64,000 nucleotides of DNA, taken from positions 19,445 through 83,444 of the forward strand of contig JACJJN010000015.1 in assembly GCA_016899975.1 (NCBI GenBank), written 5' to 3'. Shown here piece by piece: positions 10,667 to 50,163 of this stretch; positions within the stretch are counted from its first letter, which is position 1, and each line of letters begins with the position of its first letter. The notes below the pieces were generated by a model. That model worked only from the letters and a program-made list of their open reading frames with translations. It searched no databases and was not told where the DNA came from. The translations under genes and the position numbers were made by a program. The DNA comes from Lacrimispora saccharolytica (GTDB lineage: Bacteria; Bacillota; Clostridia; Lachnospirales; Lachnospiraceae).

Positions 10667-10723
10667 TTCAGCCAGCGGAACTGTAGCAAGAAATGTGTAT
10701 CAATTCCGCCGCCTGAACCGTTA
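10667..10723. repeat. Degenerate palindromic repeat downstream of GH43
   Basis: Nested arms TTCAG (10667-10671) with CTGAA (10713-10717), and GCGGAA (10675-10680) with TTCCGC (10704-10709), followed by CCGTTAC. The right side CTGAACCGTTAC matches the dispersed palindrome seen at 37130 and 47923, so this looks like a decayed copy. It may also serve as a weak terminator for GH43. Confidence 0.45.
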
Positions 10724-10752
10724 CAGAAATATGATAAATTTTTATGAAAAAC

Positions 10753-14620: not shown

Positions 14621-14648
14621 GTAACCGTTCATCCAGCTGAACTGTTAC
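14621..14648. repeat. Solo palindromic repeat upstream of the ECF sigma gene
   Basis: GTAACCGTTCA (14621-14631) and TGAACTGTTAC (14638-14648), one mismatch between the arms. Same family as 8161, 37130 and 47923. It falls in the 5' leader of the sigma factor gene. Confidence 0.6.
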
Positions 14649-37129: not shown

Positions 37130-37249
37130 GTAACAGTTCAGCCTTGCTGAACCGTTACATGCAAAATCCATTTAAAATCGCCTTCGGCGATGGGATTTTG
37201 CACTCCTGAATCACGTTCTTACGGTCTGCGCAGCATGTGCGCAGGACCG
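37130..37249. repeat. Structured dispersed repeat, copy 1 (three hairpins)
   Basis: About 114 bases nearly identical to 47923-48036, with four or five differences. Three inverted repeats: GTAACAGTTCAGC/GCTGAACCGTTAC (37130-37158); GCAAAATCC/GGATTTTGC (37161-37201) enclosing ATCGCC-TTC-GGCGAT; and CGGTCTGCGCA/TGCGCAGGACCG (37222-37249, one bulged base). It begins nine bases after the aminopeptidase stop when read on the minus strand. There is no T-run, and no protein is encoded. Confidence 0.85.
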
Positions 37250-37257
37250 GAAACCCC

Positions 37258-38637
37258 TTATGCATTCTTCAGGAATGCCTCGTAGCCTTTTTCTGTCTCG
37301 TAGATATCCGCCTTGGATGTAATCTCCCACGGCGCATGCATATTCAGGACCGCCACGCCGGAATCGATCACCTCCATGCCGTACAGCGCCAGGATATAAG
37401 CGATGGTTCCGCCGCCGCCGACATCTACTTTACCCAGCTCTGCGGTCTGCCAAGCAACTCCCGCATCGTCCAGGATCCTGCGCAGATCGCTCAGGTATTC
37501 TGCATTGGCATCGTTGGAGCCGGATTTTCCGCGGGATCCTGTAAACTTGTTGAATACCATACCTTTGCCGAAGAATGCCGCGTTTTTCTTCTCAAATGCG
37601 GAAGCGTACAGTGGATCGTAACCGGCGCTTACGTCGGAAGAAAGCATTCTGGAATTGCTCAGGCAGCGGCGCAGCTTCAGCTCGGAATACTCCCCGGTCA
37701 GGTTCATCAGCTCTGCCAGCACGTTCTCAAAGAACTTGGACTGCATTCCGGTAGCGCCGACGCTTCCGATCTCTTCCTTGTCCACCAGCAGGCAGCAGGT
37801 TGTTTTCTTTGTGTTTTTCACTTCCAGCATTGCCACCAGAGAGGTGTACGCACACACACGGTCGTCCTGTCCGTATGCCATGATCATACTGGAATCAAGA
37901 CCTGTCTCTCTCGCTTTTCCAGCCGGTACGATCTCCAGTTCCGCAGACAGGAAATCTTCTTCCTCGATACCGTATTTCTCATTGAGAAGCTTCAGGGTCA
38001 TAGCTTTGACTGCCTCTTTTTCCTCACCTTCCAGCGGCTGGCTTCCTACCAGCAGATCCAGGCCTTCGCCCTCGATCACTTTTGCCGCCTTTTTCTCCAT
38101 CTGCTCTCCGGACAGATGAACCAGCAGATCCGTCACACAGAACACCGGATCCTTCTCGTCTTCTCCGATCACCACATCCACAACGGTGCCGTCTTTCTTT
38201 GCCACAACACCATGGATCGCCAGCGGAAGCGTTACCCACTGATATTTCTTGATTCCGCCGTAATAATGAGTATCCAGATAAGAGAATCCGGTATCCTCGT
38301 AAAGCGGATTCTGTTTTACATCCATACGCGGAGAATCGATATGCGCGCCGAGGATATTCATTCCGTCGGTCAGCGGCTTGCTTCCGATCTGGAACAGCAC
38401 GACAGATTTCTTCATGCATACTGCATAAACCTTATCCCCTGCGTGCAGCGGTGTATTCTCCTCAATGCAGGCCTGAAGATTTCTGTAGCCTGCCTCCTCC
38501 GCCTGGCGCACGATCTCTGTCACGCACTCACGCTCGGTTTTTCCATTATCCAGGAATTCCCGGTAAGCGTCACACAGTTTGTTCATTTTCTTCAGTTCTT
38601 TCTTTTTGTAGTCATTCCATGCTGTCTTTCTCTCCAT
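37258..38637 (-). CDS. M18 family aminopeptidase
   Basis: 459 residues from MERKTAWNDYKKKELKKM; the upstream extension lies in the leader. Metal-site blocks of the M18 family: LGAHIDSPRMDVKQNPLYED (about 112-131), DKEEIGSVGATGMQS (about 291-305, catalytic Glu pair), SSDVSAGYDPLY, and the C-terminal VDVGGGGTIAYIL and MHAPWEITSKADIYE (about 405-445). The long form is typical of clostridial M18 enzymes. It removes N-terminal residues from peptides in the cytoplasm with two zinc ions. Confidence 0.94.
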   Translation of the reverse strand: MERKTAWNDYKKKELKKMNKLCDAYREFLDNGKTERECVTEIVRQAEEAGYRNLQACIEENTPLHAGDKVYAVCMKKSVVLFQIGSKPLTDGMNILGAHIDSPRMDVKQNPLYEDTGFSYLDTHYYGGIKKYQWVTLPLAIHGVVAKKDGTVVDVVIGEDEKDPVFCVTDLLVHLSGEQMEKKAAKVIEGEGLDLLVGSQPLEGEEKEAVKAMTLKLLNEKYGIEEEDFLSAELEIVPAGKARETGLDSSMIMAYGQDDRVCAYTSLVAMLEVKNTKKTTCCLLVDKEEIGSVGATGMQSKFFENVLAELMNLTGEYSELKLRRCLSNSRMLSSDVSAGYDPLYASAFEKKNAAFFGKGMVFNKFTGSRGKSGSNDANAEYLSDLRRILDDAGVAWQTAELGKVDVGGGGTIAYILALYGMEVIDSGVAVLNMHAPWEITSKADIYETEKGYEAFLKNA

Positions 38638-38792
38638 TGTACTTTTCTCCTTTATTTTTATTTTTGCTGCCAAAAGCTGCATATGGCCGCTCTCTTTTCT
38701 GGCTGCAGCCTATGTAGGTGGCTTCTGCGCAGCACCTGTGAAAAAACCAAAACTGAGCTTTGATTCTTTCACAGATGCTGCCCATACCGTTC

Positions 38793-40091
38793 TTAATTTT
38801 GATCCCTTCCGCTCACTTCACGCAGGATCTTTTCCGCCTGCTGATAGATCCGCTCCGGATCGACCGCTGTATGGAATCTGCCGTTCTCATAAAGAATCTT
38901 TCCGTCGATCATCGTCAGGCACACATTCTGTTTGCTGCCGCTGTACACAAGGTTTTTCTCCGGATCAGAAAACGGCCGCATATTCGGCTGATTCCGGTCG
39001 ATCATGATCAGATCCGCCTTCTGTCCCCGGGTCAGCGTTACACAGTCATTCAGTCCCATCGCCCGCGCACCGTTGACTGTTGCCATCCGCAGAACCTTCT
39101 GTGCCGGAACCGCCGACGCGTCGTTTTCCCGGAGCTTTGCCAATCCGGTCACCAGAAACATTTCCCGGAACATATCCAGACAGTTGTTGCTTGCCGGCCC
39201 GTCCGTTCCCACAGCCACCGGAATGCCTCTTCTCAGTAATTCCGCCACAGGAGCAATGCCGCTGGCAAGCTTTGTGTTGGAACCGGGACAAGTCACCGCG
39301 TACAGCCCTCTTTTCCGGAAAATCCCGAAGTCTTTTTCCCGCAGCCAGACACAGTGATATCCTCCGCCGCCGTAGTCAAACAGGCCAAGATCCTCCATCA
39401 CCTGTGTCGGCGTTTTCCCGTAGCGTCCGATGCACTCCCGGACTTCCTTCTCCGTCTCAGAATTGTGGGCGAACACCGGCGCCTGAAACTTATGGGCAAG
39501 CTCTGCCAGGGCTTCCATCCGCTCCCGGGAGGTGGTGTATTCCGCGTGAAAGCCCAGACGGTAACTGACAAGATCCCCCGGGCAGTTCCATTCGTGATAA
39601 CACCGCTCTTCCTCCTCCGGCGACTGGCAGAAATTGTTCATCGCTCCCACCAGGACCGTCCGGAATCCAAAATCCCTGGCGGCTTTTCCAACAGCATCCG
39701 GGATCAGATACATATCAAACGCAGCAGTGATCCCGCTGGTCAGGTACTCCAGAAACGCCAGCATGGACAGCCAGTAAATCTTTTCTTCGTCCAGCTTTGC
39801 CTCCATGGGAAAGACCTGCCGGTTCAGCCATTCATCCAGCGGCATGTCGTCGGCAAAAGAACGGAGAAATGTCATGCCGGAATGTGTATGCGCATTTTTA
39901 AACCCCGGCATCAGAAGGTTTCCTCCGGCATCAATTTCCCGGTCAAATGGTTCCCGCCTTGAAATTTCCTCTGCGGAAAGACCAGGTCCCACATAAGTGA
40001 TCCGGTCATCCTCCACATGGAGTTCTCCGTCAAAAGCCGGTCTGTTTTCCTCCATCGTCAGAATCTTCCCATGAAAAAAACGTATTTTCAT
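38793..40091 (-). CDS. Amidohydrolase (chlorohydrolase / adenosine-type deaminase family)
   Basis: 432 residues from MKIRFFHGKILTMEENRP, start chosen for GGGAGGTGGCTGGT just ahead. Metal-dependent hydrolase barrel: MPGFKNAHTHSGMTFLRSF (first His pair, about 58-76), FHAEYTTSRERM, PVFAHNSETEKEV (about 201-213), and AVGTDGPASNNCLDMFREM (about 298-316, final Asp). The family includes S-adenosylhomocysteine/methylthioadenosine and guanine deaminases. It starts 23 bp after the purine nucleoside phosphorylase, so a purine-deaminating salvage step is likely; the exact substrate is open. Confidence 0.88.
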   Translation of the reverse strand: MKIRFFHGKILTMEENRPAFDGELHVEDDRITYVGPGLSAEEISRREPFDREIDAGGNLLMPGFKNAHTHSGMTFLRSFADDMPLDEWLNRQVFPMEAKLDEEKIYWLSMLAFLEYLTSGITAAFDMYLIPDAVGKAARDFGFRTVLVGAMNNFCQSPEEEERCYHEWNCPGDLVSYRLGFHAEYTTSRERMEALAELAHKFQAPVFAHNSETEKEVRECIGRYGKTPTQVMEDLGLFDYGGGGYHCVWLREKDFGIFRKRGLYAVTCPGSNTKLASGIAPVAELLRRGIPVAVGTDGPASNNCLDMFREMFLVTGLAKLRENDASAVPAQKVLRMATVNGARAMGLNDCVTLTRGQKADLIMIDRNQPNMRPFSDPEKNLVYSGSKQNVCLTMIDGKILYENGRFHTAVDPERIYQQAEKILREVSGRDQN

Positions 40092-40114
40092 ACCAGCCAC
40101 CTCCCTGCTGTATG

Positions 40115-40942
40115 TCAGCGGAACATCGCCTGAATGCTCTCGGTCACCAGCCGACGGAACAGCGGCGCCACCCGGTCCGCAGCCTCCTGCACTTCCTGAT
40201 GGGACAACGGCTGTTCCGTCATGCCGCAGGCAAGATTGGAAATACAGGAGATTCCGCAAATCTTCATTCCCATATGATTGGCTGCCACCGCCTCACATGC
40301 TGTACTCATTCCCACCGCATCGGCTCCCAGGATCCGGCACATTTTCACCTCGTGGGGCGTCTCAAAATTCGGACCGGTCAGCTGGATATAAGTTCCTTCC
40401 CGCAGGGTGATCCCAAGATTCTTTGCCGTATCCCGGAGCACTTCCTGCAGATCCCTGTCATAAATCTGGCTCATATCCGGAAAACGGGGGCCCAGTTCCT
40501 CCGAATTCGGACCGATCAGCGGCGACGGCACAAAGCTGGAAATCTGATCCGTGATCATCATAAAATCTCCCGCCTGAAATTCATAATTCACACCGCCTGC
40601 CGCGTTGGTCAGGAACAAAACCTCCGCCCCCATCTTTCTCATCAGCCGGATGGGAAGCACCACATCGTCCATCGGATATCCCTCATAATAATGCACACGT
40701 CCCTGCATCATAACCACAGGAACCTGACCGATATGCGCAAAGACGAAACGTCCTCTGTGGCCGGGTACTGTTGACACCGGAAAGCCCTCGATCTCCTGAT
40801 AGGGGATCTCGCCCTCAATCGGAAAGTTCTCCGCGTAATCGCCAAGCCCGGAACCGAGGATCAGCGCCAGTTTCGGCGCGAAAGGAATTCTGTTCCTGCA
40901 TGATTCGCAGCATCTCTGAAGTTTTTCATATCCCTGTCCCAT
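40115..40942 (-). CDS. Purine-nucleoside phosphorylase (trimeric type)
   Basis: 275 residues, the length of low-molecular-mass trimeric PNPs. Phosphate site LALILGSGLGDYAE (about 25-38) and GHRGRFVFA, VHYYEGYPMDDVVLPIRLM (about 83-101), base site LTNAAGGVNYEFQAGDFMMI (about 111-130), and GPNFETPHEVKMCRILGADA and VGMSTACEAVAANHMGM (about 196-230). It splits guanosine, inosine and deoxy forms to base plus ribose 1-phosphate. Shares an operon with the amidohydrolase downstream. Confidence 0.95.
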   Translation of the reverse strand: MGQGYEKLQRCCESCRNRIPFAPKLALILGSGLGDYAENFPIEGEIPYQEIEGFPVSTVPGHRGRFVFAHIGQVPVVMMQGRVHYYEGYPMDDVVLPIRLMRKMGAEVLFLTNAAGGVNYEFQAGDFMMITDQISSFVPSPLIGPNSEELGPRFPDMSQIYDRDLQEVLRDTAKNLGITLREGTYIQLTGPNFETPHEVKMCRILGADAVGMSTACEAVAANHMGMKICGISCISNLACGMTEQPLSHQEVQEAADRVAPLFRRLVTESIQAMFR

Positions 40943-41337
40943 AATTCTCTCCTTCCATTTCCTGCTCCGATTTGCCGGAACATATTAAAAGGAACTCAAA
41001 ATACCATGTAACTATTATATCCGATTCTGCTTTGGAACACAAGAATGTGTTTCCTTTGAAATTATGGCTACTATGACGCGGACGGCAATTATTACCGTTC
41101 CGGCTTCGGTCTGCATTACTCTGTTTAATCAACTGTTCAGTCAGCTAAGCGATTGCATTTCATTGCTGCTCACAAAAGAAGGCTGCCGGAAAATTCCGGC
41201 AGCCTTCTTAAAAAGGGGAGGATAAGTATTTCAAGGTTATCTTTTGTAGCTTCTGTCCCTGGAGGGGGATCCAGCGGACATTCTTATTATATCCTCCCTG
41301 TTTTCTTTTATACATTTTCGCCGAACTTTTACAAACA
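40943..41337. other. Gap between purine phosphorylase and DnaJ-like gene
   Basis: 395 bases. It holds the terminator at 41176-41209 and presumably the PNP promoter near 41020. On the plus strand one frame at about 41062-41128 reads YGYYDADGNYYRSGFGLHYS before a stop, which looks like the tail of a lost gene but is too short to name. Confidence 0.45.
41176..41209 (-). terminator. Terminator downstream of the DnaJ-like operon
   Basis: A 16-bp perfect stem (AAGAAGGCTGCCGGAA, two-base loop, TTCCGGCAGCCTTCTT) followed by TTGTG on the minus strand and AAAAAG on the other. About 130 bases after the DnaJ-like stop. Confidence 0.85.
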
Positions 41338-42036
41338 TCAGCAGCAGTAAAATCCTCTGCCGCCGTAACAGCAGCAGTTGCACATTGCATTGATTGCGAG
41401 ACACTCACAGCACCATTTTCCCATGTCTCCGCCGGCACGTTCATAGCCGTATCCCTGCCCCATGTCCGTGTACCACTGACCGCCTCCCTGAAGCTGGGAA
41501 AGCAGCTGACGGTACTGCATATTGTCCGGTTCCATGTTGACCGCAGTCTGTGCATCCTGCACGGCGCTGATATTGTTTCCAAGCCCGGCATTGGCAATGG
41601 CATGCAGATAATACCACTGGGCGTTGTGGCGGGAAATGTTGTTCAGCACACGCATCGCTTCCTGATATCTCATATTGTTCAGATAATTCGCCGCCGCACG
41701 AAGCTCCGCATCCTCCGTGGAACTTCCATAATTATATCCGCCATAATTTCCGCCATAACCGCCGTTTCCATAAGAGCCGCCGTAACCGCCGCTGCCATAG
41801 GAACCGCCGTAGCTTCCCTGGGAACTGTAGGAGGATGTTCCGTTTTCCTTCTCCTCCATGATCTGTTTATATGCCTGCTGTACCTGCTTGAATTTCTCTT
41901 CTGCTTCTGCTTTATTGGGATTATTGATATTGGCGTCAGGATGGTATTTCCGGCTCAGCGTACGGTAAGCTTTCTTGATTTCCTCCGTACTGGCATCCCG
42001 GGACACTCCCAACACCTGATATGGATCTGTCATCAA
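41338..42036 (-). CDS. DnaJ-domain protein with Gly/Tyr-rich linker and Cys-rich tail
   Basis: 232 residues. J domain at about 3-65 ([33 protein letters not shown] with the HPD motif). A low-complexity linker of repeated GGSYG/GGYGG units follows (about 75-105), then a TPR-like helical part ([40 protein letters not shown]) and a tail dense in cysteine ([20 protein letters not shown]). A Hsp70 partner of unknown client. It overlaps the DUF5685 gene by four bases. Confidence 0.88.
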
Positions 42037-42878
42037 TGTTTCTTCTCCTCATCTTCACTTTCGCGTTTACGTTTGAGCATCTCGTACTTTGTCCAGATAC
42101 CAGCATACAATATATTTCTCAAAATGTCCACATTTTCCAGTATCGGAAGTTTTTCAAACGCTCTGGAGGCCTCCGCCGTCATCATCAGCAGAATCCTCTC
42201 CACAGCTTCTTCAAAGCCATCGGTCTCCTGAAGAAAAACCAGAGGATTGTAATTTCCCGACTTTTTATCCTTCTCCACATCTTCATAGGCATCCATCAGA
42301 TAAATAAACTTTCCGATGAAAAATCCCAGCCGTCCCAGATCTTCCTTCCAGATATCGTCCCGGAATTGATAGAGCTTTGCCAGCACCTCTCCGGTATAAC
42401 CTGCCGCCTGATCCAGATCTCTGGATTTTTCCGCCTCACAGATATGGATTTTTTTCAGATACTCTTTTACCGCCCGGGTCTGCCGCGGGTATTTCTCCGC
42501 AACTTTCAGGAACGACCCGCGCAGCGCTTTCGCTCCCACATATGCCGCATGCTTTTTTTCATCCTCCCAGTCATCCAGCAAATTGTAATATGTAAGCAGG
42601 ATATTCATATCCGCGGCGTAACGGGTAAACTCATTGCGCAGGCATACATGCTTCCTTCCCGGATGAGCAATACAGTAATGTTCCTCGCGGACAGTCTTGT
42701 CTTCATACAGACCGGTCAGAAGGATTGCGAGAAACGTCATATCATAAGTAAGCGTTGCCTGCCCCTTGAACCCATAGGACTCCTTCAGGTCCTGACAAAC
42801 TCCGCAGTAATAAGCATGATATTTGTCATAGTCTTTTATTTTCAGATCGTCTTTTCTGATCGTAACATATCCAAACAT
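42033..42878 (-). CDS. DUF5685 family protein
   Basis: 281 residues, all-helical. Opens [20 protein letters not shown], then [20 protein letters not shown] (Cys-x-x-Cys, about 22-41); [19 protein letters not shown] and [20 protein letters not shown] with [19 protein letters not shown]. These paired Asp-rich helices recall isoprenoid-synthase-like folds. DUF5685 proteins usually neighbour J-domain proteins in clostridia, as here. Function unknown. Confidence 0.82.
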
Positions 42879-42895
42879 GCAGTATTCATTCCCTT

Positions 42896-43297
42896 TCAGG
42901 TACGTTTGATAAATTTCGTATTACATTTCGGGCAGCGGATCTCGATGGTTCCCTTTCCTTTCGGCACGCGGACTTTCTGTTTGCAGTTCGGGCAGCGGAA
43001 ATACGCATAGTTTTTATCCCTGTGTGTCCGGGAGCCGCCGCGGAAGAGACCGAAAAATTTGTCTTTGATCTCCATGTACTTGTCATTCTCCGCAAGGCGC
43101 TTTGACTGATTTCTGGAGAACATACGAAAATAGCACCATACCAGAAGCAGGATCGACAGCGTATAAAGCAGGCTGCTTCCGGTAAACAGCCCGATGATCA
43201 TCAGTATAATGGCCGCCCAGAGTGAAAAATTCCCCAGCGGATCCATGCCGTAACGGCCATACATAAAATTTGACAGCCAATCTCTCAATTTGTTCAT
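42896..43297 (-). CDS. Small membrane protein with C-terminal zinc ribbon
   Basis: 133 residues from MNKLRDWLSNFMYGRYGMD. Two membrane helices (FSLWAAIILMIIGLFTG and LLYTLSILLLVWCYFRMF, about 24-60), a basic stretch, and a zinc ribbon, FRCPNCKQKVRVPKGKGTIE followed by RCPKCNTKF (about 100-128). First gene of the zinc-ribbon/DUF5685/DnaJ unit, 17 bases upstream of DUF5685. Possibly a membrane adaptor for the chaperone. Confidence 0.8.
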   Translation of the reverse strand: MNKLRDWLSNFMYGRYGMDPLGNFSLWAAIILMIIGLFTGSSLLYTLSILLLVWCYFRMFSRNQSKRLAENDKYMEIKDKFFGLFRGGSRTHRDKNYAYFRCPNCKQKVRVPKGKGTIEIRCPKCNTKFIKRT

Positions 43298-43489
43298 ATT
43301 GGTTTTACACATCCTTCATTTTATTATACCTAATACTGTATCGCTTTTATGCTGGAATTGCAATTATCTGACAATAAATTTTTTCTTAAATTTTGCGGCA
43401 AAATGGAAAGTTGTGGTTTCGCAGGGGATTTTGTGGTATGGTAGAAAGGAAATGACACTGACAGAGAAAAATACGAGGTGACAAAAGGA

Positions 43490-43753
43490 ATGAAATGGAA
43501 TTTGAAAAGGATCGGCGCCATTGCGGCAATTATTGTTTTGCTGGGCTTTGCCGCTGCGGCTTTGATCTTCGCTTTTATCGATGCCCCCTGGGCGCAGGAA
43601 GCACTGAGTGCCTCGCTGTTCTGCGCGATCACGGTTCCTGTCTTCATCTATCTTATGATGCTCGTGGCAAAAGTGCTCCGCGGCAGAGGTGTAAACAGTG
43701 ATAAAAAGACGGATCTCGATCAGCCACAGGCAAAAAACAGCAGCAAAAAATAA
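43490..43753 (+). CDS. Small two-helix membrane protein
   Basis: 87 residues from the ATG at 43490, about nine bases after GAGGTG. Two hydrophobic helices (IGAIAAIIVLLGFAAAALIF and SLFCAITVPVFIYLMMLVAK, about 9-60) and a charged tail ending QPQAKNSSKK. I do not recognise a family. The HAD gene begins 22 bases after its stop, suggesting co-transcription. Confidence 0.65.
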   Translation: MKWNLKRIGAIAAIIVLLGFAAAALIFAFIDAPWAQEALSASLFCAITVPVFIYLMMLVAKVLRGRGVNSDKKTDLDQPQAKNSSKK

Positions 43754-43775
43754 CTGGAAAGGACTGGGAAATTTT

Positions 43776-44384
43776 ATGATCGATACAATAGTATTTGATG
43801 TTGGTAACGTACTTGTAGAGTGGAACTATTCTGATTATCTGGACGGGCTGGGATTTTCCCCGGAAACGAAAGCTGCCGTTATAAACGCCGTTTTTGAAAA
43901 TCCCGTGTGGAATAAGCTGGATCAGGGAACGGTCTCAGCGGAAGATGCGCTGACTTCTTTTATCAGCGCCGCTCCGGAATATGAACCGGAAATCCGGAAA
44001 GCCTTTGCCGGCTGTGATGCCTGCATCCATCTGTTTCCTTACTCCGTGGACTGGATCAAAGAGCTGAAAGAAAAAGGATACCGTGTACTGATCCTCTCCA
44101 ATTACTCCGAATATCTTTTCGAAAAAACAAAAGGAAAAATGGCGTTTCTCCCTCTGATGGACGGCACACTGTTCTCTTACCGTTACAAAATGGTAAAACC
44201 GGATGCGGAAATCTACCGTCAGCTGATTTCCATGTTTGATCTGGTACCGGAGCATACGGTATTTATCGATGACCGGAAAGAGAATGTGGATGCAGCCGCG
44301 GCTTTTGGCATCCATCCGGTGCAGTTTTTCGGATACGAAGACGCCCGGAAAAAGCTGGAAGCCCTCGGCGTGACATGCCATTAA
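43776..44384 (+). CDS. HAD-superfamily phosphatase
   Basis: 202 residues from MIDTIVFDVGNVLVEWNYSD. Motif I DVGNVLVEW with nucleophile Asp (about 8), motif II VLILSNYSEYL (about 108-118), motif III Lys in YKMVKPDAEIYRQL, motif IV VFIDDRKENVDAAAAFGI (about 164-181). The NVLVEW and SNYSEYL forms match YihX-like small sugar-phosphate phosphatases. Substrate unknown. The upstream extension overlaps the preceding gene and has no ribosome site. Confidence 0.88.
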   Translation: MIDTIVFDVGNVLVEWNYSDYLDGLGFSPETKAAVINAVFENPVWNKLDQGTVSAEDALTSFISAAPEYEPEIRKAFAGCDACIHLFPYSVDWIKELKEKGYRVLILSNYSEYLFEKTKGKMAFLPLMDGTLFSYRYKMVKPDAEIYRQLISMFDLVPEHTVFIDDRKENVDAAAAFGIHPVQFFGYEDARKKLEALGVTCH

Positions 44385-44415
44385 ACATTTGCAATAACGA
44401 TTCCCAAAAAATGGT

Positions 44416-44444
44416 TTGACATTTCCTCCCTACAGGTGTAGTAT
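44416..44444 (+). promoter_or_regulatory. Promoter of the BlaI/M56 operon
   Basis: TTGACA (44416-44421), 17-bp spacer, TAGTAT (44439-44444). The operator arms overlap spacer, -10 and start site. Confidence 0.8.
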
Positions 44445-44473
44445 GGAATTAGGACACTACACCTGTAGGGAGG
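44425..44473. promoter_or_regulatory. BlaI-type operator: 18-bp perfect inverted repeat
   Basis: CCTCCCTACAGGTGTAGT (44425-44442) is repeated as its exact complement at 44456-44473, with 13 bases between. Each arm holds a TACAnnTGTA-type box like those bound by BlaI/MecI dimers. The left arm covers the promoter spacer and -10, the right arm includes the GGGAGG ribosome site of the repressor gene, so bound repressor would block transcription and the mRNA could also hide its own ribosome site. Confidence 0.8.
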
Positions 44474-44479
44474 TTTTTT

Positions 44480-44845
44480 ATGAATACATTATCAGATGCA
44501 GAATGGGCTGTGATGGAAATTCTGTGGGAGCACGAATCCTGCACCCTTGGTAAAATTTCAGAAATCCTTGCCGTCTCCAAAGGCTGGCGGCAGAATACCG
44601 TCTATACGTACCTCACCAGAATGGAAGCCAAGGGGCTTGTGTCCATTGACAAAAGCTGCACGCCCCACCGCTATTCCTATGCTGTGAGCCGCGAGATCTG
44701 CGCCAAAGCGGAGCGCTCCTCTCTGCTCCAAAAAGTATATAAGGGCGCTGCCGGCGATCTCATCGCCGCGTTTCTGAAAGAATCAAAAATATCTGAAAAA
44801 GAGCGTAAGGAACTGCGCAAAATGCTGGATGATATGGACGTCTGA
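44480..44845 (+). CDS. BlaI/MecI/CopY family transcriptional repressor
   Basis: 121 residues. Winged helix at about 1-70: LSDAEWAVMEILWEHESCTL, VSKGWRQNTVYTYLTRMEAK with GLVSIDKS, then a dimerisation helix region with LIAAFLKESKISEKERKELR. The family is inactivated by cleavage after a signal from a membrane M56 protease, encoded 23 bases downstream. Own operator overlaps the start region. Confidence 0.94.
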   Translation: MNTLSDAEWAVMEILWEHESCTLGKISEILAVSKGWRQNTVYTYLTRMEAKGLVSIDKSCTPHRYSYAVSREICAKAERSSLLQKVYKGAAGDLIAAFLKESKISEKERKELRKMLDDMDV

Positions 44846-44868
44846 ACCCGGAAAAGGAGGTGCGGCCT

Positions 44869-46824
44869 GTGACAAATCTATGGAGTTTTCTTCTACAAAC
44901 GCTGGAAGTTTCCTGGACAGCGCTTTTTCTTCTGATCCTGAAAAGGCTGCTGGCAGACAAACTTTCGCCCCACTGGCAGTACGGAGTCTGGGGCGTGCTT
45001 TTTCTCCGCCTTCTGATTCCGGCGGGTGCCTTCGGACGGTATCTGCTGACTTTTCCGGCGGCCGCCCTGCAGACCGCCAAAGAGACGGCGGAAGCATCGC
45101 TTTCCTCCGTTTTTTGTGATCCGTCCTCTCCTGTGCAGGTAATCGTCGGAATCCCCTGGCTTTCCGGAGCCCCAAAGAGTGCAACCGACTGGCTCTTTGT
45201 CCTCTATCTTGCCGGCGTGCTCTTCTGTCTGGCGAGATATTTTCTCTCTTATGTCTTCCTGCGTCTGCTTCTCCGCCGGGGGCGTCCTGTATCGGAAAGA
45301 CAGCAGAAACAGATCACGGACGTATGTTCCCGTTACGGTCTGACCCCCTGCCGGGCGGTGATCCTGAACGGTATTCCTTCCGCATTTGTCTGCGGTGTTT
45401 TCTCTCCGGTTCTGGTTCTGCCCGAAAAGGGAGCGGATGACAAGATCCTGCTCCATGAGCTGCTGCACCTGCATTCCATGGACGCTTTCCAGAGTATTCT
45501 GTGGAGCGTCTGCCGTTCCATTCACTGGTGCAACCCGTTTCTGCAGTACGTATTCAACCGCATCGGCAATGACATGGAATCCCTCTGCGATCAGAGGGTT
45601 CTGGAACTTCTGGAAGGAGAAGAACGGAGAAAATACGGAGAAATCCTGCTGGATATGACCAATGACCGTTATCCCCGGGCTCCCGGCACCACTTCCCTTT
45701 CCAATGGCGGCAGAAACATCCGCCGGCGGATCGTGGCGATCACACGCTTTCAGAAATATCCCAAAGGAACGGCGCTTGTCTCCGTCTGCATCACCCTCAC
45801 TTTGCTGCCCGCCCTGCTGACAGGTATTTCTGCGATGCCGCTTCCGTCCGGTGATACCTTTCCATCCTCATTCAACACAGCCGGTGCACATCTGGTCCGC
45901 TGTACCACTGCCGCCGGAGCGGTGGATACTTACGCCAAAGGTCTGATGGCTCAGAACTCTGCATGGCTGACTGCCGCATCTCCTTCACAGGAGCAGACGC
46001 AGGTTGACGAACTGGTACAGGAACTCAGGCAAAAGAACCTTTTTTTTAACGGGGACTATTATCTCTATAATCCCGTGCCATGCAAAGGCAGACGATGGCA
46101 GGCTCTTCTTGTCTTTCCCACCAGTTGTCTCTATGACGAAAACGGAATGCCGGAGACGGTTTACAACCAGGAACATTCCGCGGAAGAAACCGCCTGGGGA
46201 TATCATGTGTTCCCGGTCACTATCTTTCAGGAAAACAAAAACCGCTGGGTAGTAGCAGCAGAAGACGGACACCAACAGTTTCTCATGGAAGATACATTCC
46301 CTCCCTGCCGATACGGATCTGAAGACCTTCCCTCCTGTCAGACCACTGTGGAAGGCGAAACGGGAACGTTTCTCGCATCCCTGCAGCTTATTTACACCAT
46401 CCAGCCCGAAACGGCATCCGGCGGTAACAGCTCTTTTTTCGAATCCATAAATGCAGGGGGAACAACCTTTTTACCGCCGGACCGCAACGCTGAATTTTCC
46501 TGGGCATTTTACTATCAGACGTTCCAGTGGACCGCCAAAGATCAAAGCGCCGTTTCCGCCTCCTGCTCCAAAGTACGGATGAACGTGTCGTTTCCGGATG
46601 CCTATACTGCGGATTATGAGGTAGACGAGAACCCGGGTGCTCCGGCATGGAACGGAACACTTCTGACCGGGGGCGGCAGTTCCTTCGGCGGCACAATCAC
46701 GGAACCGGAACTTCCGCCAAGCGCAGACTTCCGCATCACCATTTTTTTTGACGACGTTTTACAGGAAAGCGTCACCCTGCACGGAAAGGAGTGGTTGTAT
46801 GAAAACGAAAACTTATGTTCATAA
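44869..46824 (+). CDS. M56 family membrane metalloprotease sensor (BlaR1-like)
   Basis: 651 residues from the GTG at 44869, eight bases after AAGGAGG; a GTG nine bases earlier overlaps the ribosome site. Four membrane helices surround the gluzincin motif HELLHLHSMDAF (about 196-207) and the downstream Glu in NDMESLCDQRVLELLEGE. A last helix (ALVSVCITLTLLPALLTGI, about 300-320) leads to some 325 extracytoplasmic residues. That part does not show the SxxK/KTG motifs of the penicillin sensor of BlaR1 and is not a domain I recognise, so the inducing signal is unknown. Functions with the BlaI-like repressor. Confidence 0.9.
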   Translation: MTNLWSFLLQTLEVSWTALFLLILKRLLADKLSPHWQYGVWGVLFLRLLIPAGAFGRYLLTFPAAALQTAKETAEASLSSVFCDPSSPVQVIVGIPWLSGAPKSATDWLFVLYLAGVLFCLARYFLSYVFLRLLLRRGRPVSERQQKQITDVCSRYGLTPCRAVILNGIPSAFVCGVFSPVLVLPEKGADDKILLHELLHLHSMDAFQSILWSVCRSIHWCNPFLQYVFNRIGNDMESLCDQRVLELLEGEERRKYGEILLDMTNDRYPRAPGTTSLSNGGRNIRRRIVAITRFQKYPKGTALVSVCITLTLLPALLTGISAMPLPSGDTFPSSFNTAGAHLVRCTTAAGAVDTYAKGLMAQNSAWLTAASPSQEQTQVDELVQELRQKNLFFNGDYYLYNPVPCKGRRWQALLVFPTSCLYDENGMPETVYNQEHSAEETAWGYHVFPVTIFQENKNRWVVAAEDGHQQFLMEDTFPPCRYGSEDLPSCQTTVEGETGTFLASLQLIYTIQPETASGGNSSFFESINAGGTTFLPPDRNAEFSWAFYYQTFQWTAKDQSAVSASCSKVRMNVSFPDAYTADYEVDENPGAPAWNGTLLTGGGSSFGGTITEPELPPSADFRITIFFDDVLQESVTLHGKEWLYENENLCS

Positions 46825-47377
46825 CCTGTCACGCATTGCCTGGGCCTATGTATTTCTCTTGATCGATTTTTCCATGAGTGTCAATGATTTCAGCATCAAT
46901 GTGCTTCCCGGCTGGGTCGGTTTCCTGCTGATCTTTCTTGCGCTTCCTTCCGTGGAAGAACAGGAACCTTCGGCCTCCCTCCTGCGGCCCCTGGTTATCC
47001 TTCTCGGCCTCTGGGAAGTGATCCGCTGGGTCGGAACACTGGTGACCGGCAGCGTCTTTGATATTCCGCTGCTGACCTTGATTTTATCCGCCCTTTCCAT
47101 GTATTTCCATTTTCAGTTTCTGACCAATCTGTCCTCCATTGCCCGGACGCACGGACTCCTGGAGGATTCTGAAAAACTGCTGCATCTGCGGACCGGACTG
47201 ACGCTGTTTACCGCCCTTGTGACAATCCTTTATTTTTTGAATCTTCTGGAACTGTTCCAGGGAGTTTTCCTGGGTCTTTTCCTTCTCGGTGCCATTCTAT
47301 GTACATCCTGGGCAATCTGGACTGTCTTTCACTACCGGAATGCGGAAAAAGCGCTGCTTCCTGCCGAAGAAGCATAA
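46799..47377 (+). CDS. Polytopic membrane protein of the BlaI/M56 operon
   Basis: 192 residues from the ATG at 46799 (AAAGGAG ahead), overlapping the M56 gene by 26 bases. About six membrane helices: IAWAYVFLLIDFSMSV, GWVGFLLIFLALP, VILLGLWEVIRWVGTL, LLTLILSALSMYFHFQFL, ALVTILYFLNLLELFQG, FLLGAILCTSWAIWTVF. Not a family I can name. Being tightly coupled to the sensor, it is probably the output of the circuit or a helper of the protease. Confidence 0.75.
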   Translation: MKTKTYVHNLSRIAWAYVFLLIDFSMSVNDFSINVLPGWVGFLLIFLALPSVEEQEPSASLLRPLVILLGLWEVIRWVGTLVTGSVFDIPLLTLILSALSMYFHFQFLTNLSSIARTHGLLEDSEKLLHLRTGLTLFTALVTILYFLNLLELFQGVFLGLFLLGAILCTSWAIWTVFHYRNAEKALLPAEEA

Positions 47378-47384
47378 AGACTGT

Positions 47385-47425
47385 ACAGGGGCGCATCTGC
47401 GGTAAATCCGCAGATGCGCCCCTGT
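47385..47425. terminator. Strong bidirectional terminator
   Basis: An 18-bp perfect stem (ACAGGGGCGCATCTGCGG, loop TAAAT, and its complement) followed by TTTCCC. It lies between convergent units ending at 47377 and 47472. Confidence 0.9.
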
Positions 47426-47471
47426 TTCCCATCAATCTGATGACTGGATATTTATTCTTTCATACTCTGCA

Positions 47472-47882
47472 TTAATCATTTCTTTCCCGGTTCAGAACGT
47501 ATTCCCCATCCTCTCCGGTCAGCCAGCAGACATTCATGTCATCCCATTCAAAATCTTCTTCCAATTCTGCCACCACCATCTGATGGTTATCCATCTGGAT
47601 CCTTACCACACAGCGGAGATCTTCCGCCGGATCGATAGAAAAGCAGGCTTTGCTGCCTTTCTGCATATACTGGCTGTTCACAGCCTGACGGAGCTCTCCG
47701 TCTTTCTCGTAGCTGACGCTGACCGCGTAGACCACGTCTTCCGATTCGTTTCCGATCACCAGGTTGCAGCCCTGGCGTTCCAGCGCTTCCATCTCTGCCT
47801 CCTGAACCGCCCAGGTACACAGGCCGCCCGCCGCTGCCCCTGCTGCAATGGTGCATACCAGTGCCAGAATCCATTTTTTCAT
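47472..47882 (-). CDS. Small exported protein of unknown function
   Basis: 136 residues. An N-terminal signal or anchor helix, MKKWILALVCTIAAGAAAGG, followed by a soluble domain: GCNLVIGNESEDVVYAVSVS, CFSIDPAEDLRCVVRIQMDN, DDMNVCWLTGEDGEYVLNR. Beta-rich with three cysteines after the signal. No family recognised. It lies downstream of the PBP gene, beyond repeat copy 2. Confidence 0.7.
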   Translation of the reverse strand: MKKWILALVCTIAAGAAAGGLCTWAVQEAEMEALERQGCNLVIGNESEDVVYAVSVSYEKDGELRQAVNSQYMQKGSKACFSIDPAEDLRCVVRIQMDNHQMVVAELEEDFEWDDMNVCWLTGEDGEYVLNRERND

Positions 47883-47922
47883 ACGTTTCCCTCTTTCACT
47901 TTTCTTATGTTTTCAAACTTAC

Positions 47923-48040
47923 GTAACAGTTCAGCCCTGCTGAACCGTTACATGCAAAATCCATTGAAAATCGCCTTCGGCGATGGGATTTTGCACTCCT
48001 GGATCACGTTCTTACGGTCTGCGCGGCATGTGCGCAGACC
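47923..48040. repeat. Structured dispersed repeat, copy 2 (three hairpins)
   Basis: Near-identical to 37130-37249. The same three stems: GTAACAGTTCAGC/GCTGAACCGTTAC (47923-47951); GCAAAATCC/GGATTTTGC enclosing ATCGCC-TTC-GGCGAT; and GGTCTGCGC/GCGCAGACC, here unbroken, whereas copy 1 has a bulge. It ends 21 bases after the stop of the PBP gene when read on the minus strand, the same relative place as copy 1. Confidence 0.85.
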
Positions 48041-48060
48041 TGAACTGAACTGTAAAAACC

Positions 48061-50163
48061 TTACTCCATCCAGCTGCTCAGAAGTTCCGCCGTCTTCGAA
48101 ACCACATATCCGCTTCCTCCGCGATCTTTGACGTCCTCAGTCATCGTCAGCAGCAGAAACGCATCCTGTTCTCCGGCATCCGGTGTCAGGATGCCAAGCC
48201 AGCCAAGCTCCGTTCCCGTGGTATCTTCCTGGCTGTCCTTGATCTCCGCGGTTCCCGTTTTTCCGGCAAGGGTAATTCCATCCATCTGGCAGGCGTGGGC
48301 GGTGCCCTCCGGGTTTTCCACAACCTGGACCATATCGTTCTTCACGATCTCAGCCGCCTCGGCGGTAAACGCCTGTTCCACCCAAACCGTCGGCTCCGCC
48401 GTCTCCGTCATCCGCAGGTAAGGCTGTATCATATTTCCCTCGTTGACAAACGCGGTATAGATTGCTGCCAGATGCAGAGGATTGACCAGCAGCTGCCCCT
48501 GTCCGTATCCACTGTCCGCCAGCTGGATCTCTGACCACTCCCCTTCCTCATTGGAATAGGCGGATTCCGTGGTCCAGATATCGAAAGGAACCCGCTCATT
48601 GAATCCCAGGCGGTCCAGCTGTTCCGTCAGCGTATCCTGCCCGATCTTCAGCGCCGCACGGGCAAAATAAATGTTGTCTGACAGGATCATCGCGTTTTCC
48701 AGATTGGACGGATCCGTCCCGTGGAGCGTTGTGACATAATAATTTCCCCAGCTTGCATCCTTCTGCCAGCTGGTTCCCACCGCCCCGAAATCCTCATCGG
48801 GGTCCAGCGTCCCGGTGCTCAGCCCGATCCCGGCAACCACCGGCTTAAAGGATGAACCGGGAACAAACGTCGCCCGGAATCGGTTGAGCATCGGCTGATT
48901 CTCGTCCTCGTTCAGGCTGTTCCAGGTATTCTCCGACATTCCCAGCACAAACAGATTGTTGTCATAGGACGGCGTGCTCACCAGGGCAAGCACCTCTCCC
49001 GTCTTCGGATTCATAGCGACAGACACACTCTTGTCCGTCTGATACTGCTCATACAGCCTCTGCTGCAGATCCGCATCCACCGTAAGGGTAATGTCCGTTC
49101 CATCGACCGCCTCCTTCCGCAGGATCAGCTCTTTTTGCTGCCCCTCTTCGTCCACCATCATGATCTGGCATCCGGCGCTCCCGCGCAGTTCTTCCTCATA
49201 CAGGCTTTCCGCGCCGCTTTTCCCGATCACACTGTTTGCCGTATAACCTTCTCCTTCGTGTTCTTCCAGTTCTTCTGCGGTAATATTCTGCACATATCCC
49301 ACCAGATGGGCTGCCGCCTCTCCCAGCGGATACACCCGCTCCGACGCGTCTGTGATCATCACACCGGGAATGGCAAGAAGCTGGCCTTCCAGTGAATCCT
49401 CGGAAGGCTCATTCAGCTCAGCTTTCCCCAGCACTTCCATATCCAGTCCGCTCTTCTTGATCTCCCGGATCGGAACGAAGGAATCCTCCTGCACCCAGGA
49501 AGCCGACAGTCGGTTCTGTATGGACTCCACCGTTGTATCCAGCAGTTCCGCCAGCTTTTCCAGATCCGCCGATGGATCCTCGCTCATCTTTCCCGGAACC
49601 AGACCGACCGATGAGACAACGCCTTCTCCTGCCAGCAGGATACCGTTCCGGTCATAGATGCTGCCTCTTTTTGCGTCCAGCGTTTCCACCCGGATCTTGT
49701 CCGTCGCCAGAAGGTGCGGAAAGATCAGGGCATCATTCCAGGACAGCCGGTAGCCTTCTCTTCCGCTCTTATGAAACGTTGCCGTCTGTGTAAAGGACAG
49801 CTCTCCCGCCATCGTGTCCATTTTCATCTGATAGGTCAGATTCTGCGTTGTCTGTCCGCTCGTCCTGTTTTCGCTGCCCTCATCCGTGATCTCCACGGTA
49901 ATATTGGACGCCTCGATCCCCTCATAAATATTCTTGTTTCTCTCGGTAAAGGTTTCCTGGTCTGTCTCCTTCTGACTCTCTTCGTCCAGAAGTTCATACA
50001 TTTCGTCGTAAGCGCCATTGTTCAGTGCCGCTATGTATTCGTCCATTGTCTCCGCCGCGGTTCTTCCGCTTCCGCCGAGAACTGCAAAAGCAATTCCCCC
50101 GCCTGCCGCCGCAGCCACAAGAACTGCCGCAGCCACGATCAGCCATTTCTTTTTCTGCTTCAT
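48061..50163 (-). CDS. Penicillin-binding protein, MecA/PBP3 type transpeptidase
   Basis: 700 residues from MKQKKKWLIVAAAVLVAAAA; the ATG three codons earlier is only one base from GGAGG, so this start, ten bases away, is preferred. One membrane anchor, then an NTF2-like MecA_N domain (about 35-145: ETMDEYIAALNNGAYDEMY), a PBP-dimer domain (about 155-340) and the transpeptidase with SSFK (Ser437, Lys440), SDN (about 495-497) and KTGT (about 635-638). It cross-links peptidoglycan outside the membrane. The MecA_N domain is shared with low-affinity PBPs, so reduced beta-lactam sensitivity is possible. Sixty bases after recO. Confidence 0.93.
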   Translation of the reverse strand: MKQKKKWLIVAAAVLVAAAAGGGIAFAVLGGSGRTAAETMDEYIAALNNGAYDEMYELLDEESQKETDQETFTERNKNIYEGIEASNITVEITDEGSENRTSGQTTQNLTYQMKMDTMAGELSFTQTATFHKSGREGYRLSWNDALIFPHLLATDKIRVETLDAKRGSIYDRNGILLAGEGVVSSVGLVPGKMSEDPSADLEKLAELLDTTVESIQNRLSASWVQEDSFVPIREIKKSGLDMEVLGKAELNEPSEDSLEGQLLAIPGVMITDASERVYPLGEAAAHLVGYVQNITAEELEEHEGEGYTANSVIGKSGAESLYEEELRGSAGCQIMMVDEEGQQKELILRKEAVDGTDITLTVDADLQQRLYEQYQTDKSVSVAMNPKTGEVLALVSTPSYDNNLFVLGMSENTWNSLNEDENQPMLNRFRATFVPGSSFKPVVAGIGLSTGTLDPDEDFGAVGTSWQKDASWGNYYVTTLHGTDPSNLENAMILSDNIYFARAALKIGQDTLTEQLDRLGFNERVPFDIWTTESAYSNEEGEWSEIQLADSGYGQGQLLVNPLHLAAIYTAFVNEGNMIQPYLRMTETAEPTVWVEQAFTAEAAEIVKNDMVQVVENPEGTAHACQMDGITLAGKTGTAEIKDSQEDTTGTELGWLGILTPDAGEQDAFLLLTMTEDVKDRGGSGYVVSKTAELLSSWME

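What the first reader, a model, noticed from the sequence alone, without database searches (positions are those of the whole stretch)
37130..48040. Twin ~118-bp structured repeats with three conserved hairpins, each just behind a gene
37130-37249 and 47923-48040 are almost identical for 114 bases. Both fold into the same three stems: a GTAAC-ended palindrome, a GCAAAATCC/GGATTTTGC stem with an inner ATCGCC/GGCGAT hairpin, and a GGTCTGCGC/GCGCAGACC stem. The few differences mostly leave the stems intact. Both copies lie in the same orientation 9-21 bases after the stop of a minus-strand gene, with no T-run. Unrelated flanks rule out segmental duplication. This could be a mobile structured element (MITE/REP-like) or a family of 3'-end RNA elements affecting mRNA processing or small-RNA release.
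Basis: partly seen in the sequence, partly recalled or inferred. Interest (0 to 1): 0.75.

Follow-up and report, generated by a model that had tools for sequence, protein, structure and literature searches.

The report
IS66-type miniature transposon with hairpins
The two repeats are copies of a ~134-bp mobile DNA element that carries three hairpins, makes an 8-bp target duplication and is scattered through this genome and many related bacteria; it is likely moved by an IS66-type transposase encoded elsewhere, and two of its three hairpins stay matched in a way that looks the same from both DNA strands, so the matching alone would not prove that it works as an RNA.

Summary
Each copy belongs to a ~134-bp element: a left hairpin (P1) made of the terminal inverted repeat plus its own inverted copy, a stem with an inner hairpin (P2), a linker, a third hairpin (P3) and a right terminal repeat. 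Of 245 model matches with flanks, 102 have an exact 8-bp target duplication and 150 one within a mismatch; shifted controls give 0 and 0-1. It occurs in 44 of 250 sampled genomes of the family but 2 of 299 across the phylum, both of this family. Divergent IS66-type insertion sequences in relatives share its ends and 8-bp duplication, so it is probably an IS66-derived MITE. Stems covary strongly (35 of 37 pairs changed on both sides), but in P2+P3 G.T and A.C half-steps are equally rare (16 v 20), so one-strand RNA selection is not shown; P1 differs (6 v 24). One copy looks as if one arm was copied onto the other. Twenty 27-29-bp palindromes with 8-bp duplications, one of them in this window, are probably deletion remnants. 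Eight paper searches showed no description. New member of a known kind.

The parts
37130..37249 (+). MITE copy 1, right terminal repeat lost
37130..37158 (+). Copy 1 P1: left terminal repeat plus its inverted copy (29-bp palindrome)
37160..37202 (+). Copy 1 P2: TGCAAAATCC/GGATTTTGCA stem with inner ATCGCC-TTC-GGCGAT hairpin
   Evidence: covariation of the family
37203..37222 (+). Copy 1 linker CTCCTGAATCACGTTCTTAC, conserved in many copies
37223..37248 (+). Copy 1 P3: GGTCTGCGCA/TGCGCAGACC hairpin, one extra G in the 3' arm
47923..48056 (+). MITE copy 2, full length 134 bp
47923..47951 (+). Copy 2 P1
47953..47995 (+). Copy 2 P2
48016..48040 (+). Copy 2 P3
48046..48056 (+). Copy 2 right terminal repeat (TGAACTGTAAA, slightly decayed)
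47915..47922 (.). Left target duplication aaacttac
48057..48064 (.). Right target duplication aaccttac (one mismatch); overlaps the stop codon (48061-48063) of the penicillin-binding-protein gene
14621..14648 (.). 28-bp solo palindrome of the same end repeat, exact 8-bp duplication tctgtctg
   Evidence: there as L305:1066
10697..10724. Weaker 28-bp solo palindrome, 8-bp duplication agaaatgt/agaaatat; not among the twenty

Best explanation
This is a family of ~134-bp non-autonomous transposons (MITEs) with terminal inverted repeats of about 13 bp and 8-bp target duplications, likely moved in trans by a divergent IS66-family transposase whose own element has the same kind of ends. The element is too short to encode a transposase. 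Shown: ends, duplications, copy number, family-restricted spread in the sample, length variants, and IS66-type elements in relatives with matching ends and duplication length. Inferred: that this transposase moves the MITE. The three hairpins are kept paired by changes on both arms. Because G.T and A.C intermediates are equally rare in P2 and P3, the upkeep of these two probably acts on DNA (one arm copied onto the other by template switching, with selection for the palindrome), or on RNA made from both strands. The 27-29-bp solo palindromes are probably remnants left when a deletion joins the P1 3' arm to the right terminal repeat, which are ~13-bp direct repeats. Copies inside operons would be co-transcribed and add hairpins to the mRNA; any effect on expression is untested.
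For: Target duplication: 102 exact and 150 within one mismatch (exact included) of 245 matches with flanks; outward shifts of 1-24 give 0 exact and 0-1 near; exact counts at lengths 6, 7, 9, 10 are 2, 2, 3, 0. Parent: L183/L314, 2358 bp, PF03050 transposase, ends GTTACTGTTCACACCC / GTTACTGTTCAGACGC, exact duplication gccggaat; also L321 (GTTACCATTCACGGGG, caaagccc) and L323/L327 (GTTACAGTTCACACCC, gtattaga), both exact; a single end GTTACTGTTCAGCCC near a partial transposase (L324) equals the GTTACTGTTCAGCC end of many MITEs. MITE end subtypes parallel IS end subtypes, e.g. GTTACCATTCACGG in L209/L292 and L321. Covariation: A1 91.7% paired v 81.1 shuffled; A2 90.6 v 68.0, 35 of 37 pairs with two-sided changes. 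Strand symmetry: P2+P3 A.C 20 v G.T 16 lineage-collapsed events; in the first set of 100 elements the outer P2 stem had 15 v 16 and the unstructured end-against-end control 36 v 33. Template switch: L107 has a 24-nt 5' arm that is the exact reverse complement of its 3' arm, while its relative L078 has that 3' arm but not the 5' one. Close copies: 67 substitution events in 7865 stem bases v 92 in 4912 other bases, p 6.6e-7 (right repeat apart, 56 in 1404). Solos: 20 with the duplication among 216 repeat pairs 24-32 bp apart (most of them P1 of longer elements), against 0-1 at shifted positions; 4 of 5 own-genome 29-bp solos carry the right-repeat base v 4 of 27 P1 arms (p 0.009).
Against: No IS66 transposase was found in the source genome itself at the cut-offs used, which is a draft of 201 contigs. 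Only 3 distinct IS elements have an exact duplication; L315, L318, L320 and L322 have both ends but no matching duplication. Several results favour an RNA read from the minus strand: P1 A.C v G.T events 24:6 (p 0.0014) and 42:2 cells in the first set, where P3 was also 10:4; co-directional insertions 77:42 minus-reading (p 0.0017); among close copies one-sided events are A.C-rich, 25 v 9, though substitution spectra inside and outside stems do not differ clearly (29:19 and 29:34). Within close clusters two-sided matched changes are few (7 against about 1.7 expected, 3 of them perhaps an alignment shift), so template switching is seen clearly once. The linker and the P3 tip GCAGYAARTGC are conserved in sequence in most copies, which arm copying does not explain. 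95 of 245 matches have no duplication within one mismatch.
Confidence: 0.78

Rival explanations
1. A mobile regulatory RNA: the element is a MITE, but its hairpins are kept because the minus-strand RNA (right end, P3, P2, P1) acts in the mRNA, as proposed for ERIC and NEMIS.
For: Minus-reading bias 77:42; P1 A.C excess 24:6, which is G.U on the minus strand; A.C excess among close copies 25:9; conserved linker and P3 tip; a median 31 nt after the upstream stop.
Against: P2 and P3 show no strand asymmetry (20:16), and G.T is 17 of 2416 P2+P3 cells, v 39 of 474 pairs in 22 tRNAs (ARAGORN may mark accepted pairs only). 43 of 173 insertions are divergent. No Rfam match at gathering score.
Confidence: 0.3
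2. A structured DNA substrate: the hairpins are needed for transposition, as folded single strands or cruciforms.
For: Strand-symmetric pairing in P2 and P3; the terminal repeat is built into P1.
Against: Forms of 69 bp without P1 and P2 (L137, L148) and of 81 bp without P2 (L084) also have 8-bp duplications, unless these too are later deletions; the first 30 bases of the IS66-type elements printed show no P1-like palindrome (by eye).
Confidence: 0.12
3. The 27-29-bp solo palindromes transpose on their own and would be among the smallest transposing units.
For: 20 with 8-bp duplications; many in one genome.
Against: They are simply explained by deletion between direct repeats; 4 of 5 subfamily-1 solos carry the right-repeat base.
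Confidence: 0.12
4. Segmental duplication or an intrinsic terminator.
For: Both window copies follow stop codons.
Against: Unrelated flanks, target duplications, no T-run, no terminator enrichment.
Confidence: 0.01

Closest known systems
ERIC / IRU / RU-1 (enterobacteria)
   Same: 127-bp structured, intergenic, multicopy MITE; orientation-dependent mRNA effects reported (PMC2229807, passages read)
   Different: That review lists 7-bp end repeats and 5'TA3' at the termini; here ~13-bp ends, 8-bp duplication, IS66-type parent, three separate hairpins, another bacterial family
CIR elements (Caulobacter/Brucella)
   Same: Hairpin arms joined by a linker rather than one end-to-end stem (PMC2229807, passages read)
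   Different: The review lists no terminal repeats for CIRs; here repeats and duplications are clear
Correia/NEMIS and RUP
   Same: Small MITEs; RUP is tied to IS630-Spn1 by end similarity, as done here (PMC2229807, passages read)
   Different: TA at the termini; other IS family
IS66 family
   Same: PF03050 transposase domain and 8-bp duplication in the putative parents
   Different: Ends GTTAC... rather than the GTAAGCGTC of an IS66 in L171; NF033517 scores 171.7 and 161.9, below the 180 cut-off
Template-switch maintained hairpins (PMC8794818, passages read)
   Same: Arm-to-arm copying can give matched two-sided changes in one event
   Different: Described there for RNA genes; here in a mobile element

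Membership tests
MITE | Terminal inverted repeats | tested here: met
   about 13 bp at both ends of full copies; copy 1 of the window has lost one
MITE | Target site duplication of fixed length | tested here: met
   8 bp, 102 exact of 245
MITE | Short, multicopy, mostly intergenic | tested here: met
   ~134 bp; 44 non-redundant model matches with flanks in own-genome loci, a few weak or overlapping, 29 with the duplication; 18 of 207 insertions inside a predicted ORF (heuristic gene calls)
MITE | Autonomous parent with the same ends | tested here: met
   IS66-type elements in relatives; none found in the source genome
MITE | Transposition in trans shown | not testable with these tools
   needs an assay
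IS66 family (parent) | PF03050 transposase domain | tested here: met
   71.6 (L176) and 90.4 bits (L183), cut-off 23.1
IS66 family (parent) | NCBIfam IS66 equivalog cut-off | tested here: not met
   NF033517 171.7 and 161.9 against 180
IS66 family (parent) | TnpA/TnpB accessory genes (recalled as typical) | tested here: inconclusive
   short upstream ORFs (114 and 95 codons) have no Pfam or NCBIfam match
ERIC | TA at the termini | tested here: not met
   8-bp duplication, GTAAC/GTTAC ends
One-strand structured RNA family | Compensatory changes | tested here: met
One-strand structured RNA family | G.U tolerated above A.C on one strand | tested here: inconclusive
   P2+P3 16 v 20; P1 6 v 24, i.e. 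minus strand
Any Rfam family | Covariance-model match at gathering score | tested here: not met
   (window and 23 loci)

The most novel reading that the evidence does not exclude
The element's hairpins are rewritten at the DNA level: replication template switching copies one arm onto the other, giving textbook 'RNA covariation' in a mobile element without RNA selection, so covariation in repeats like this would be a false sign of a functional RNA unless a G.U v A.C strand test is passed.
Probability: 0.4. Interest if true: 0.7.

Novelty: new member of a known kind. Interest (0 to 1): 0.5.

Why it matters
It would add an IS66-type, heavily structured MITE family to a major group of gut bacteria; eight searches of an open-access paper library listed none. 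Copies often sit just after stop codons and between operon genes, so they could tune expression in many species. The family is also a natural test case for a general problem: compensatory changes are usually read as proof of functional RNA, but in two of the three stems here pairing is kept about equally well from both strands.

Tried and rejected
Terminator targeting: 6 of 89 sites v 46 of 890 random and 50 of 870 nearby positions; rejected. Ordinary IS66 as parent: none in the source genome, and L171 has a GTAAGCGTC end; replaced by the divergent GTTAC-ended subgroup. Known RNA family: no match at gathering level in the window; in 8 loci at E<=1 one chance-level overlap (mir-214, E 0.75, 20.7 bits against a gathering score of 66.7, over the L071 copy); in 15 loci at E<=0.5 no overlap with the element. 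Strand asymmetry from mutation alone: spectra inside and outside stems not clearly different. Presence on plasmids: no match; three unannotated faecal phage records at 72-75% identity, not followed. A first element parser misplaced ends and was replaced. Of the 137 candidates, 21 without a recognisable P3 were dropped; one of them, L095:2824, is a true divergent copy by the model. Two chance pairs stayed in: L087:788, L069:763. One search used the first 97 of 103 rows of A2 and treats each genome as one lineage. P1 of L033, a solo without a direct duplication, carries the P1-type base and was not in the 4-of-5 count.
Full report
Observation. In the source genome (3.25 Mb, 201 contigs) the first copy finds 47 matches at E<=0.01, 29 of them spanning at least 100 bases, so this is a dispersed family.

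True extent. P2 is a stem with an inner hairpin, then a linker, P3 and the right repeat. Copy 2 is 47923-48056, with duplications aaacttac/aaccttac; copy 1 lost its right end. The copy 2 duplication overlaps the stop codon of the penicillin-binding-protein gene.

Mobility. Among 262 unique model matches from three searches of fetched loci, 245 have 40 bases on both sides; 102 have an exact 8-bp duplication and 150 one within a mismatch. Shifting outward by 1 to 24 bases gives 0 exact and at most 1 near match, and exact duplications of other lengths number 0 to 3. In own-genome loci, 29 of 44 have it within one mismatch. 95 of 245 do not; decay, truncation and a few weak model matches are among them.

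Spread. With a covariance model built from 27 divergent copies, 44 of 250 genomes of the window's family, the source included, have matches (at most 13 candidates scored per genome, strict filters), and 2 of 299 across the phylum, both of the same family and one of them the source. That the window's family is Lachnospiraceae is inferred from the named records.

Parent. No PF03050 transposase was found in the source genome. In relatives, a divergent IS66-type group (PF03050 71.6 and 90.4 bits; NF033517 171.7 and 161.9, below its cut-off of 180) has ends such as GTTACTGTTCAC or GTTACTGTTCAG. Of 13 genomes with matches among 348 searched, loci of 8 show both ends; exact 8-bp duplications were found for three elements (L314, L321, L323/L327) and not for L315, L318, L320 and L322; L317 begins at a contig end. 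IS end subtypes recur as MITE end subtypes. That this transposase moves the MITE is inferred.

Covariation. In A1, 91.7% of cells pair against 81.1% after shuffling, and 20 of 37 pairs have two-sided changes. In A2 (103 matches, 97 distinct, mostly from other genomes), 90.6% against 68.0%, 35 of 37 pairs and 671 cells with two-sided change; slid partners pair at 29-42%. A2 was fitted to the model, which favours its structure.

RNA or DNA. A stem kept as one RNA tolerates G.U on its strand but not A.C. Collapsed by genome, P2+P3 have 16 G.T and 20 A.C events (p 0.62), and P1 has 6 and 24 (p 0.0014). P1 is confounded because its left arm is also the transposon end. In the first set the cells were P1 2 v 42, outer P2 16 v 15, P3 4 v 10, and end against end, which need not pair as a stem, 33 v 36. 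A tRNA control has 39 G.U in 474 pairs of 22 tRNAs. So P2 and P3 look symmetric: kept on DNA, or as RNA from both strands; P1 and the close-copy events (A.C 25, G.T 9) lean to the minus strand. L107 shows a whole 24-nt arm matching its partner where the relative L078 does not, the pattern described for template switching (PMC8794818, passages read). Against this, clear two-sided changes among close copies are few (7 against about 1.7 expected), and the linker and P3 tip are conserved in sequence.

Context. Of 207 unique insertions, 18 fall inside a predicted ORF and 16 at edges; the other 173 are 119 co-directional, 43 divergent and 11 convergent (background gaps 527, 126, 102). Co-directional copies are read from the minus strand in 77 and the plus strand in 42 (p 0.0017), a median 31 nt after the upstream stop (heuristic gene finding). 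There is no terminator enrichment.

Short forms. Twenty 27-29-bp palindromes carry 8-bp duplications, against 0-1 at shifted positions; the one at 14621 lies in the window, and a weaker one, outside that count, at 10697. In subfamily 1, 4 of 5 own-genome solos carry the base of the right repeat, whereas 23 of 27 full copies have the other base in P1 (p 0.009). This fits deletion between the P1 3' arm and the right repeat. Forms of 69 bp (L137, L148) and 81 bp (L084) with duplications lack P2, and the 69-bp ones also P1.

Literature. Nine paper searches were made; one search was about template switching, and the other eight looked for this or similar elements and listed no IS66-derived MITE of Lachnospiraceae that I could recognise from titles and abstract starts. 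The library is open-access only. Passages only were read of PMC2229807, PMC3189936, PMC8794818, PMC10969869 (no mention of IS66 or Clostridia) and PMC2267715. Other papers were seen as listings only.

Verdict. An IS66-type structured MITE family: new member of a known kind. The open and testable question is what keeps its hairpins paired.

Noticed in passing
L048:1502-1645 and L052:1502-1645: A different ~144-bp structured interior between the same terminal repeats with 8-bp duplications: another MITE family using the same ends.
   Followed up: no
L033:1468-1496: A 29-bp solo palindrome whose flanks are inverted (acgcaagaa/ttcttgcgt) rather than directly repeated, extending the hairpin.
   Followed up: no
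Source genome: 260 matches to the end repeat against 0 in the reversed control, yet no IS66 transposase found: the parent may be lost, missing from the draft, or act from elsewhere.
   Followed up: partly
MT837311.1, MT839789.1, MT836459.1: Three unannotated phage records from human faeces carry 72-75% identical copies.
   Followed up: no
L073:4110-4387: Two adjacent copies in the same orientation, separated by one 8-bp sequence (tcctttcc or its complement) that also flanks the pair; L056:273-545 also has two adjacent copies.
   Followed up: no
L130, L148: MITE right-end pieces lie next to a sequence like the GTGAAAAGTAAC end of an IS66-type element such as L184.
   Followed up: no
L129:1734-1883: A group II intron match (RF02001, 63.9 bits) in a locus that carries the MITE.
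   Followed up: no
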